This document shows positions 39,326 through 63,535 of a DNA stretch of 64,000 bases, piece after piece. The stretch is taken from contig JAQPZY010001448.1 of NCBI GenBank assembly GCA_029931535.1, positions 1,488,001-1,552,000 of the forward strand. Reading direction: 5' to 3'. This stretch comes from Margaritifera margaritifera (taxonomy: Eukaryota; Mollusca; Bivalvia; Unionida; Margaritiferidae). The position numbers and the translations under genes were made by a program. How positions within the stretch are numbered: position 1 is the stretch's first letter; every line of letters begins with the position of its first letter. The notes beneath the pieces were generated by a model. The model saw nothing but the letters and a program-made list of their open reading frames with translations, searched no databases and was not told where the DNA came from.

Positions 39326-39542
39326 CCGTATATACTCGCGTATAATCGCAGTCCAAATGCAAACAACATAGACCCTGATCTGCCGTCGCATAATGCGCCG
39401 GCAGATCAGGGTCTATGTTGTTTGTTTTACTGATTAGTCCTTACAAACTGCATAGACCCAGATCTGCTGGCGCATTATGCGACGGCAGATCTGGGTCTAT
39501 GCAGTTTGCAGTTGGTATTGAATTATACGCGAGTACATACGG
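39326..39542 (+). mobile_element. Double-hairpin MITE, copy 1
   Basis: Terminal inverted repeats ccgtatatactcgcgtataa and ttatacgcgagtacatacgg, flanked by TA (39324-39325 and 39543-39544). Inside are two long palindromes. One runs from aacaacatagaccctgatct to its reverse complement, centred on cgcataatgcg. The second runs from aaactgcatagacccagatc to its reverse complement, centred on cgcattatgcg. A spacer of about 20 bp (gattagtccttac) lies between them. TA target sites point to the Tc1/mariner superfamily. No coding capacity. Confidence 0.93.
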
Positions 39543-39618
39543 TAATTGTTATACTGGTTCTTAGCACTTTATGAGAACCATAAGCTCATTATCTGAAGGG
39601 ATACGTCTTCAGAACATA

Positions 39619-39728
39619 TTAAGAACTATCAAAAACTTCCTTCTTTGGAATCCAAAGGTCTACATATAACGATTTGAAATCATTATCACTGAATATAACG
39701 AATATGTTTTCAGAGGCTCTTTCGGGAA
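39619..39728 (-). CDS. Putative exon of the right paralog (WIPKKEVFDSS)
   Basis: Minus frame of 36 codons, PERASENIFVIFSDNDFKS then LYVDLWIPKKEVFDSS, ending in TAA at 39619-39621. A stop lies just before it, and an AG (aacaag) sits between that stop and the frame, allowing an acceptor. The left block at 3525-3660 aligns but has stops. Function not recognised. If this stop is real, then this exon and the one at 33721 cannot both belong to one transcript, unless they are alternative ends or separate copies. Confidence 0.3.
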
Positions 39729-39735
39729 CTTGTTA

Positions 39736-40364
39736 TCATCCCTGCAACTTATGTTATACTGTGGAGAAGGTTGGACATGCTGAGTTTTCTTATAGATGAT
39801 ACTTTATAGCTGTGGAAAACTTGCCTAAATATTGATAATGTACCAGTCTCTCTCATTTGCCGAGCCAATATGGATTGAATATTCCTTTTTAATAATCATA
39901 CATTCGACGACTTTACATGGTCTAAATGCAAGCAACACAATTCTTCGTGTTTCTCATATCTTGAACAACTTTTTTCACTTCCAGTGTTCATAACAGCTCC
40001 CACCTCTCTTCCTCTCCATATTTATAGTTCGAATTAGTACCAATATCTGCGTCAGTATTTTAGTTGCTAAGTTTAGGAAACGTTAAATTACACTGTTGAA
40101 TGTTGAAAAGTGAAACGTGTTTGGGTTTTTATTTGGCAGTGATAAAAAGAAACACTAATAATGAATCAATGTGCCACAGGGCGCTGGTCAGAATAGTTTC
40201 AAAGTAACGCGAACAGACACTAACTATGGTAAAATAGCCATTTTAATTTTGACGAGATAAGGGGGAGGGGGGGAAGAACGTAATTATTACGTATAGGTAA
40301 GTGAAAAGGGGACAATTAAAAATATTTGACACATAGAAGGTCACATGACACGAAAGCTCGTGCC
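39736..40364. other. No gene seen
   Basis: AT-rich with a small G-rich patch near 40261. Duplicated block 2 ends at about 39735. Confidence 0.5.
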
Positions 40365-40930
40365 AAGAACATACTTATAACACTGGAATATGGTAGATTC
40401 TATCGAATATGATGAATACAGAGAATGTACATTAACACTGGAATACGGTAGCTTCGATCAAGCATGATGACTACAAAGAATGTACATTAACACTGGAATA
40501 CGGTAGCTTTGATCAAGCATGAGGACTACAGAGAATGTACATTAACATTGGAATACGGTAGCTTCGATCGAATATGATGTCTACAGAGAATGTACATTAA
40601 CACTATAATACGGTAGCTTCGATCGAATATGATGACTACAGAGAATGTACATTTACACTGGAATGCGGTAGCTTCAATCAAGTATGATGACAACCGAGAA
40701 TGTACATTAACACTATAATACGGTAGCTTCGATCGAATATGATGACAACAGAGAATATACATTAACACTGGAATACTGTAGCTTCAATCGAGTTTGATGA
40801 CTACAGAGAATGTACATTTGCACTGGAATACGGTAGCTTCAATCGAGTTTGATGACTACAGAGAATGTACATTTGCACTGGAATACGGTAGCTTCAATCG
40901 AGTTTGATGACTACAGAGCATGTACATCAT
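40365..40930. repeat. 55-bp minisatellite
   Basis: About ten units around acactggaatacggtagctt and gactacagagaatgtacatt. Spacing is 55 bp at 40446, 40501 and 40556. Confidence 0.93.
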
Positions 40931-41398
40931 TTTTAAGTTTGAAATCAATCTTTCCGTATGCTATAAAGAGAATATGTAACTGGAACACAAAATGTTTTTT
41001 CTCCGAATATTTTTTTGTATTCATTAAACCCGAATGCAGTGAATATTTATTGGACCATGCTGAAGCAGTGTTGTATAGACACACAATATATCATTCTTGT
41101 AGTTAATTCTGGCCGCTAGGGCCTGTTGGTTTTCCTACAGACGGTGATGTCATGGTTGCTGATTTCGCACAATTTACATAATTGTACAATTGTTGTAAGC
41201 TTCAGTTTTCGAAGGAAGTTCTAACAGTTTTATCACATTTCAGGTGTATGAGACGCATTTCAATCTCAGATGACGTCATGATGATTTATTTAAAGTGGAG
41301 ACACGTCAGTAATAAATTAGCGGCTGTCCACATTTTGGTATGAACTTAAAATCAAAAGTTAGAGTAGGATTTATTGATATATCTACCTCTACAAAATG
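40931..41398. other. No gene seen
   Basis: Less AT-rich stretch with an acceptor-like cacatttcag near 41243 and no supported exon. Confidence 0.4.
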
Positions 41399-41814
41399 CA
41401 CACACACACACACACATATATATATATATATATATATATATATATATATATATATATATATATACATACACACACATACATATATATATATATATATATA
41501 TATTATATATATATATATACACACACATATATATATATATACACACATACATATATATACACACACATATATATATACATATATATATATATATATATAC
41601 ACATACATATATATATATATATATATATATATATATATATATATATATATATATACACATACACATATATATATACACACACACATATATATATATATAT
41701 ATATATATATATATATACACACACACATACATACACACACACACACACACACATATATATATATATATATATATATATATATATATATATATATATATAT
41801 ATATATATATATAC
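41399..41814. repeat. Long (TA)n/(CA)n mosaic microsatellite
   Basis: About 415 bp of alternating TA and CACA blocks. All the overlapping Tyr/Ile/Thr/His ORFs on both strands here are artefacts. Confidence 0.97.
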
Positions 41815-41920
41815 ATGGATCTCCCTAGGATGGATCTCCATTATCCTGCAAGAAAAGTAGAACAGGCACAGTTAAACGGAATTCATTTTGAATGGGCTCT
41901 ACATATGACCAACTGAAAGA

Positions 41921-61160: not shown

Positions 61161-61194
61161 TAACTTTGTTGATTACTCTTTTCTGGATAATATT

Positions 61195-62115
61195 CATCCA
61201 GTACAAGTATAATATATCTCAGTACGGGATCTTACAACTTGCCATAAGACAACCATACTGTATCTCAGTACGGGATCTTACCACTTGCCATAAAATAAGT
61301 ATAATGTATCTCAGTACCGGGTCTTATCACTTGCCATAAGACAAGTACAATGTATCTCAGTACGGGGTCTTACCACTTGCCATAAGACAACCATAATGTA
61401 TCTCAGTACGGGATCCTACCACTTGCCATAAAACAAGTATAATGTATCTCAGTACGGGATCTTACCACTTGCCATGAGACAACCATAATATATCTCAGTA
61501 CGGGGTCTTACTTGCCATAAAACAAGTACAATGTATCTCAGTACGGGGTCTTACTTGCCATAAAACAAGTATACTACATCTCAGTACGGGGTCTTACCAC
61601 TTGCCGTAAAGTAAGTATAATGTATCTCAGAACGGGGTCTTACCACTTGCCATAAGACAAGTATACTACATCTCAGTACGGGGTCTTACTTGCCATAAGA
61701 CAAGTACAATGTATCTCAGTACGGGGTCTTACCACTTGCCGTAAAATAAGTATAATGTATCTCAGTACGGGGTCTTACCACTTGCCATAAGACAAGTATA
61801 CTACATCTCAGTACGGGATCTTACCACTTGCCATAAAACAAGTACAATGTATCTCAGTACGGGATCCCACCACTTGCCATAAAACAAGTACAATGTATCT
61901 CAGTACGGGATCTTACCACTTGCCATAAGACAATCATAATGTATCTCAGTACGGGGTCTTACTTGCCATAAAACAAGTATACTACATCTCAGTACGGGGT
62001 CTTACCACTTGCCATAAGACAACCATAATGTATCTCAGTACGGGGTCTTACTTGACATAAAACAATTATAATAAATCTCAGTACGGGGTCTTACCACTTG
62101 ATATAAAATAAGAGC
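61195..62115. repeat. 46/40-bp minisatellite
   Basis: About twenty units around aatgtatctcagtacggggt and cttaccacttgccataagac. Several units share a short deletion (cttacttgcc for cttaccacttgcc) and are interspersed with full-length ones, pointing to block amplification. Confidence 0.95.
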
Positions 62116-62693
62116 ACGATATGTGTGTAACCCTTACGTAAGCATTCTTTACTTATGAACTTAAACAATAAATCATGAACGATAAGAACTCGCAGCTTGA
62201 AACGCGTTTTTCTCCAGGTATACTCTATTTTTCTTTGGTAGGTTCGATTATCTTAACGCATATAAAAAAAGGAGTAGAACATAAGTTTGTTGGTATAGGC
62301 GCTGGCTAAAGTCATTGTTGCACAACTCTTATACGTTTCCTTACCCATGTCTGCTAAATTTTGCAATCACATTCTGATCCTTTTACTGATACCTGTGATT
62401 CTACCTGAAATGGAAGACTCGTTCATCAAAAGTAACTAAAAACGAAAACAAAACAAATGATTAACTTTATATCCGAGTTCCTAAACGCGTATATTTCAGC
62501 TATTTTGTAATAAATATAACTAATCATGGCGACATACAACAATGCCTGAAGTACCGATCGATTGATTGTGGGCAACATGTGGCAACGGTGGCATGCAATA
62601 AAAAAGTCTGATCCTCGACAAATTAGCAGGTCTTCCGTTGCTTCACACAACTTGATTTCACTGTGAAACTCAGGCGGCTTGTACTGAAATATA
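62116..62693. other. No gene seen
   Basis: AT-rich; a 74-codon minus ORF at 62426-62650 is unsupported. Confidence 0.5.
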
Positions 62694-62701
62694 GTACAAC
62701 T

Positions 62702-63007
62702 CAGTGGCGGCGCGAGGGGTGGGGGTGGGGTGGGGTCAATTGCTCCCAGGCGCCAGGTGCAAGGGGGCGCCGTCGGGAGATATTATTTTCTTTATTCCAG
62801 CTAAAATATTTATACTATTTCAGTTCACCTTAGTGTACAGGGGGCGTAGATGGGGGTGGGGGAGGATGGAGGTTGGCAACTGACATAAAAACTGTTCTCT
62901 GTGGCAAGGTAGGGGCGTCATTAAAGAACAATGCCCCCGGGCGCCTCTGTAGGGGCGCCACTAAAGAACATTGCCCCCGGGCGCTTCAAACCCTTGCGCC
63001 GCCACTG
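62702..63007 (+). mobile_element. hAT-type MITE (GC-rich family), perfect 8-bp target duplication
   Basis: Starts cagtggcggcgcgaggg and ends ccttgcgccgccactg. gtacaact flanks it on both sides without mismatch (62694-62701 and 63008-63015). The phrase cgccactaaagaacattgcc is duplicated near the right end, as in the inner copy at 4840. No coding capacity. Confidence 0.95.
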
Positions 63008-63015
63008 GTACAACT

Positions 63016-63320
63016 CTTCTCTGTTTCCCACATAAAGTTCTTAAATATACACCATATTAGCACAACAAAGTTCAAGTTAAAAAACCCACAAAGTCTTTAG
63101 AACAACCGCTTTTATGGAGACAATTAGTTTTGGGGTACTTTTTAAATCTTTGCTTTCGATAATAGGTTAAATTGCACGCTATTTCACCTTTATAAATGCC
63201 AGTGCACCACATCATGCTGTTTTCTGATAAACCATAAGAGTCATTTAATTCAGTTTTTTTTCACTAAAAGCACAACCTGTTAGGAGAGGGGAAAAAAAAT
63301 AATTTGATTGACACAGATTA
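63016..63320. other. No gene seen
   Basis: AT-rich spacer between the hAT MITE and MITE copy 5. Confidence 0.5.
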
Positions 63321-63535
63321 CTGTCTAAACTCGCGTATAGGCCGATACCAACTGCAAACTACATAGACCCAGATCTGCCGTCGCATAATGCGCCGGCAGA
63401 TCTGGGTCTATGCAGTTTGTAAGGACTAATCGGTAGAACAAACAACATAGACCCTGATCTGCCGGAGCATTATGCCACGGCATATCAGGATCTATGTTGT
63501 TTTCATTTGGATCTAGTTTATACGCGAGTATACGG
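63321..63535 (-). mobile_element. Double-hairpin MITE, copy 5
   Basis: Ends ctgtctaaactcgcg and gcgagtatacgg, flanked by TA (63319-63320 and 63536-63537). Both hairpins are preserved; the second has changes in both arms. Confidence 0.92.

What the first reader, a model, noticed from the sequence alone, without database searches (positions are those of the whole stretch)
39326..63535. A five-copy TA-flanked MITE made almost entirely of two long hairpins
Copies at 39326, 49991, 50844, 51885 and 63321 are 215-218 bp, have terminal inverted repeats (ccgtatatactcgcgtataa) and TA at both sides. Inside are two separate near-perfect palindromes of about 60 bp whose arms share tagaccc-gatctgc and whose loops are the palindromes cgcataatgcg and cgcattatgcg. 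So the same phrase occurs four times per element in alternating orientation. RNA from either strand would fold into two tandem precursor-like hairpins, and the DNA could form cruciforms. TA targets imply Tc1/mariner mobilisation; how the double palindrome arose and why it is kept is unexplained. I have not compared it with known families.
Basis: seen in the sequence. Interest (0 to 1): 0.8.

Follow-up and report, generated by a model that had tools for sequence, protein, structure and literature searches.

The report
Foldback MITE with nested palindromes
Five decayed copies of a small non-coding jumping-gene relic, built as a palindrome whose two halves each contain another palindrome, lie in this stretch of DNA; it is probably an ordinary kind of miniature transposon with an unusually regular hairpin design.

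Summary
Five full-length copies of 215-218 bp (39326, 49991, 50844, 51885, 63321), each with TA on both sides, inverted terminal repeats and two 65-nt palindromes, are in the window; a profile search finds no sixth. In the consensus both hairpins pair at 26 of 26 stem positions and differ from each other at exactly three base pairs, all changed on both sides; their asymmetric loops are exact inverted copies. This suggests a palindrome that was inverted-duplicated and then had its arms re-matched, for which replication template switching is a published mechanism. After insertion the hairpins decay (24 of 24 altered stem pairs are no longer Watson-Crick). Best reading: a non-autonomous TA-target MITE moved in trans; transposase family unidentified. 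The host genome search did not complete, so copy number, empty sites, autonomous partner and small RNAs are untested. No close description was found in the open literature searched. Mild to moderate interest.

The parts
39326..39542 (-). Copy 1 of the element (217 bp), reverse orientation relative to copies 2, 4, 5; TA at 39324-39325 and 39543-39544; hairpins 39360-39424 and 39444-39508
49991..50206 (+). Copy 2 (216 bp); TA at 49989-49990 and 50207-50208; hairpins 50024-50088 and 50108-50172
50844..51059 (-). Copy 3 (216 bp), reverse orientation, most diverged (19 substitutions from consensus); TA at 50842-50843 and 51060-51061; one terminal base missing at its high end
51885..52102 (+). Copy 4 (218 bp); TA at 51883-51884 and 52103-52104; last base substituted; hairpins about 51920-51984 and 52004-52068
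63321..63535 (+). Copy 5 (215 bp); TA at 63319-63320 and 63536-63537; two bases missing in its high-end terminal repeat; hairpins 63355-63419 and 63439-63503

Best explanation
It is a family of non-autonomous, non-coding DNA transposons (a MITE) that inserted at TA dinucleotides using a transposase supplied by another element. Shown: fixed ends, TA on both sides, inverted terminal repeats, both orientations, unrelated flanks, five full-length copies. Inferred: cut-and-paste movement in trans. Its source element was a foldback: terminal repeat, spacer, 65-nt palindrome, 19-nt centre, then the same in reverse. I infer the order: one palindrome with an asymmetric loop existed first; it was copied in inverted orientation (making the foldback); then three base pairs changed in one hairpin on both arms, most simply by short replication template switches that copy one arm onto the other. 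This state preceded the spread of the five copies, and each has decayed since without repair of the stems. The hairpins are most likely a by-product of how the source formed rather than a maintained RNA gene.
For: Anatomy and flanks in 5 of 5 copies; consensus ends identical inverted over 23 of 23 positions, TA included, and no flank-to-flank match at E 1e-3 over 200 bp on each side. Consensus stems pair at 26 of 26 positions in both hairpins; the only left/right differences across the 65 positions are 6, forming 3 complementary pairs (positions 6/60, 7/59, 17/49). The chance that 6 differences over 52 stem positions fall as 3 pairs is 1.3e-4, or 4.7e-6 if the bases must also match (computed after seeing the pattern). 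The loop is asymmetric (mismatch at 27/39) and the right loop is the exact reverse complement of the left one, so the palindrome is likely older than its inverted duplication. Within copies 24 of 260 stem-pair sites changed and 0 of the 24 became another Watson-Crick pair; 5 of them are G-T. Template switching that makes and repairs perfect stems, several mismatches at once included, is described in PMC8794818 (abstract and one results section read).
Against: No empty site, autonomous partner or genome-wide copy number: the host genome search did not complete (nine requests). TA could be part of the inverted repeat. The template-switch step rests on three base pairs in one consensus of five copies; two are adjacent and may be one event, and selection for pairing in the source would look the same. 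Stems are less diverged from consensus than spacers (25 of 520 against 19 of 139, P 8e-4; without CpG sites 19 of 480 against 16 of 130, P 9e-4), which could mean constraint on the hairpins in the source lineage; counting only changes private to one copy the contrast is not significant (19 of 520 against 9 of 139, P 0.16), and stems do not differ from the terminal repeats (12 of 196, P 0.46).
Confidence: 0.7

Rival explanations
1. The hairpins are a functional part of the mobile element: they are needed in the source copy for movement (for example folding of single-stranded DNA at replication, pairing of the ends, or foldback-primed copying), so only sources with perfect hairpins spread.
For: Perfect consensus stems with three paired changes; stems, loops and centre less diverged than the spacer. 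A foldback amplification model for short inverted-repeat elements exists (Izsvak et al. 1999, seen only as described in passages of PMC12628747). A coral MITE group whose internal region is more conserved between families than its ends is published (PMC2872659, abstract and passages).
Against: Stems are not less diverged than the terminal repeats (P 0.46) and the contrast with the spacer fades when only single-copy changes are counted (P 0.16); five copies only; no experiment.
Confidence: 0.14
2. The element encodes small-RNA precursors: transcripts fold into long double-stranded RNA or two pre-miRNA-like hairpins that are diced, as for human Made1/mir-548.
For: Very stable folds on both strands; Made1 precedent (PMC1784062, passages incl. 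abstract).
Against: Changed stem pairs in the copies are not compensated (0 of 24 Watson-Crick, 5 of 24 G-T). No Rfam family reaches its gathering score in the window. A foldback transcript would give dsRNA without any selection for it.
Confidence: 0.08
3. It is not a transposon but a dispersed or satellite-like repeat spread by recombination or segmental duplication.
For: Three of five copies lie within 2.2 kb (49991-52102); the window is rich in tandem repeats (83 rows).
Against: No match between the flanks of the copies (200 bp each side); ends fixed with TA in 5 of 5; both orientations.
Confidence: 0.04

Closest known systems
Made1 MITEs (human; source of mir-548)
   Same: Short, non-coding, near-palindromic over the whole length, stable hairpin from either strand (PMC1784062); TA targets are recalled
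   Different: Made1 is 80 bp with one level of palindrome (two 37-bp repeats around 6 bp); here the element is about 217 bp and each arm contains its own 65-nt palindrome
Stowaway-like (Tc1/mariner) and other TA-target MITEs
   Same: Short, TA at both ends, terminal inverted repeats, no coding capacity (class features partly recalled)
   Different: Terminal sequence not matched to a named family in these searches; nested double palindrome
Short inverted-repeat elements of teleost fish and the fold-back amplification model (Izsvak et al. 1999; seen only as cited)
   Same: Short inverted-repeat elements whose fold-back at replication is proposed to matter for amplification
   Different: Original paper not read; whether those elements have nested palindromes is not known to me
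CMITE group of corals (piggyBac/TTAA)
   Same: An internal region that is strongly conserved (PMC2872659, abstract and passages)
   Different: TTAA target and about 100 bp; the words hairpin and palindrome do not occur in its main text
pearl-family MITEs of bivalves (DTC84, CvA)
   Same: Modular MITEs, one with a conserved palindrome (PMC5139131, passages)
   Different: Their core is tandem satellite-like repeats, not two hairpins; whether the host here is a mollusc is not established

Membership tests
MITE (miniature inverted-repeat transposable element) | Short, homogeneous length, no coding capacity | tested here: met
   215-218 bp in 5 of 5 copies; too short for a transposase gene
MITE (miniature inverted-repeat transposable element) | Terminal inverted repeats with fixed ends | tested here: met
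   Consensus ends identical inverted over 23 of 23 positions including TA
MITE (miniature inverted-repeat transposable element) | Target-site duplication proven by an empty site | tested here: inconclusive
   TA on both sides in 5 of 5, but the only candidate paralogous empty site (near 3473) scores no better than the top 1.9% of 9037 background positions
MITE (miniature inverted-repeat transposable element) | High copy number in the genome | not testable with these tools
   Own-genome search not answered in nine requests; 5 copies in 64 kb
Tc1/mariner (IS630-Tc1-mariner) superfamily | TA target site | tested here: inconclusive
   TA both sides in 5 of 5, but no empty site to show that it is a duplication; other superfamilies are recalled to share it
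Tc1/mariner (IS630-Tc1-mariner) superfamily | Terminal repeats shared with an autonomous element encoding a DDE/D transposase | not testable with these tools
microRNA gene / Rfam family | Match to a curated RNA family | tested here: not met
   0 matches at gathering score in the whole window
microRNA gene / Rfam family | Stem maintained by compensatory change between copies | tested here: not met
   0 of 24 changed stem pairs are another Watson-Crick pair, 5 of 24 are G-T

The most novel reading that the evidence does not exclude
The two hairpins are an active module of the source element: single-stranded folding at replication, switching between one long hairpin and a stem with two hairpins, drives both its spread and, through template switching, the re-matching of its own arms, so the element uses a mutation mechanism to keep its shape.
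Probability: 0.1. Interest if true: 0.75.

Novelty: new variant of a known kind. Interest (0 to 1): 0.38.

Why it matters
MITEs spread to high numbers without coding for anything, and why some outrun their parents is an open question. A family whose halves each contain a perfect palindrome, with paired differences that record the order of events, is a natural test case for whether hairpin folding and template switching shape or help MITEs. If the hairpins prove a by-product, it is one more MITE family with a neat history.

Tried and rejected
Relatives elsewhere: plasmid collection, no match. Viral contigs: a 17-base arm pattern gave 1 locus, with no second arm by eye around it; terminal-repeat pattern 0; 15-base arm core 119 loci, that one included (which lists only part of them); long arm-plus-loop pattern 0. 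Prokaryote genome contigs: 3 loci. blastn of the consensus against all 122 loci held (20 best rows viewed) gave 17-28-base matches, and nhmmer (5 best rows viewed) nothing better than E 0.019; I take these as chance.

Host identification: 10 of 62 ORFs (90 aa or more, stop to stop) gave no Pfam family at E 0.01, and one ORF gave no homologous protein at E 0.001. That the host is an animal, perhaps a mollusc, is only my impression and is not used as evidence.

Corrections made on checking: my first alignment took one base too many at the ends of copies 3 and 5, which added false terminal mismatches. On it the stems seemed less diverged than the terminal repeats (without CpG sites 19 of 480 against 13 of 139, P 0.016). 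My first comparison of folds (pairs limited to 70 nt) left out the terminal stem and so overstated the gap between the two folds; one search replaces it.

Post-insertion maintenance of the hairpins was rejected. An empty site near 3473 for copy 1 was tried and left open.

Literature: nine of ten searches used. The terminal-repeat letters found no transposon paper: 2 papers held one 12-letter string, unrelated by title and not opened. Passages of PMC7325037 and PMC10294476 were seen and did not name these ends. Repbase and Dfam were not available.
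Full report
What is there. Five full-length copies of one 215-218 bp sequence lie at 39326-39542, 49991-50206, 50844-51059, 51885-52102 and 63321-63535, each with TA immediately outside both ends. Copies 1 and 3 are inverted relative to the others. A profile of the five finds no other copy in 64 kb, and the terminal repeat (up to 3 mismatches) occurs at 7 of the 10 element ends and nowhere else in the window. 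The copies differ pairwise by 6.8 to 13.2%, and no flank (200 bp on either side) matches another at E 1e-3. The window is 34.8% G+C, full of tandem repeats (83 rows), with no Rfam match and no Pfam match in the 10 of 62 ORFs tested.

Architecture. The 221-position consensus (TA included) reads: 20-bp terminal repeat, a variable spacer, a 65-nt palindrome, a 19-nt centre, a second 65-nt palindrome, spacer, terminal repeat. The two halves are inverted copies of each other, so the element as a whole is a foldback (copy 1: 102-nt arms, 86% complementary, 17 nt between), and each half contains its own palindrome. The same strand can therefore fold in two ways: one element-long hairpin, or a terminal stem that carries two local hairpins. 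With RNA parameters the long hairpin is the best fold on both strands of all five copies and of the consensus. The two-hairpin form lies above the best fold by 10.9 and 10.7 kcal/mol in the consensus strands and by 1.1 to 18.9 in the ten copy strands; with DNA parameters by 6.4 and 6.2, and 1.6 to 10.6. In DNA, 3 of 10 copy strands (copy 2 both, copy 5 minus) already have mostly local pairs in the best fold. The value for the two-hairpin form is for one structure put together by me, not an optimum. Copy 1 RNA lies 22 standard deviations below shuffles.

History written in the hairpins. In the consensus each hairpin pairs at 26 of 26 stem positions. Compared as inverted copies, the left and right hairpins differ at 6 of 65 positions, which are three complementary base pairs; no stem difference is uncompensated. 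If six differences were scattered at random over the 52 stem positions, they would fall as three pairs with probability 1.3e-4, or 4.7e-6 with the right bases (a calculation made after seeing the pattern). The loop is asymmetric, with one mismatch at 27/39, and the right loop is the exact reverse complement of the left. The simplest order is palindrome first, inverted duplication second, paired changes third. Two of the three pairs are adjacent. Paired multi-base changes are what short template switches between the arms of a hairpin can produce (PMC8794818: abstract and the section on compensatory mutations read). Selection for the hairpin in the source element would look the same.

After insertion. 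In the five copies 24 of the 260 stem-pair sites depart from consensus; none of the 24 is a different Watson-Crick pair, 5 are G-T and 19 are unpaired. So individual copies are not maintained. Divergence from consensus, with exact ends, is 25 of 520 in stems, 5 of 130 in loops, 3 of 95 in the centre, 12 of 196 in the terminal repeats and 19 of 139 in the spacers. Stems against spacers gives P 8e-4 (without CpG sites 9e-4), but P 0.16 when only variants private to one copy are counted; stems against terminal repeats gives P 0.46, 0.24 and 0.40. The spacer excess is thus largely variation shared between copies, which may mean several sources that kept the hairpins while their spacers varied, or only that the spacer is free to vary and the rest is as constrained as the ends. 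On five copies this is a hint at most. An earlier run with ends one base off had suggested that stems are more conserved than the ends; that does not stand.

Mechanism. The most likely account is a non-autonomous DNA transposon at TA targets moved by another element's transposase, with hairpins inherited from the source. The superfamily is open: TA fits Tc1/mariner, but no transposase with these ends was found in the little that could be searched, and the host genome search did not complete. One possible empty site, a diverged paralogue of the right flank of copy 1 near 3473, was tested; the joined flanks scored within the best 1.9% of 9037 background positions, which is not proof.

Comparison with what is known. 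Made1 (PMC1784062, passages) is the nearest in being a whole-element palindrome. CMITEs of corals (PMC2872659, abstract and passages) have a conserved interior. Pearl MITEs of bivalves (PMC5139131, passages) are modular but built of tandem repeats. I found no paper describing nested double palindromes in a TA-target MITE in nine searches (listings mostly not opened), but Repbase and Dfam could not be consulted and most subscription papers are not held, so the family itself may be catalogued.

Noticed in passing
7390-7593, 31180-31415, 41929-42174: A second dispersed repeat family, 75-87% alike between the three places.
   Followed up: no
4784-5229, 59434-59513, 62702-63008: A GGCGCC-rich repeat with inverted arms (4784-4840 and 4929-4985 are 79% complementary), possibly another foldback element.
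   Followed up: no
13507-14434: A 30-bp tandem array of about 31 copies (94% matches) that is open in several frames on both strands (361, 230 and 244 aa among them), as expected of a unit that is a multiple of three.
   Followed up: no
15193-15369 and 63822-63999: Two stretches 89% alike, the second reaching the window end.
   Followed up: no
37943-38239 and 36802-37188, minus strand: ORFs that look by eye like remnants of a retrotransposon reverse transcriptase; neither has a Pfam match, and the second was also searched for homologous proteins with none found.
   Followed up: partly
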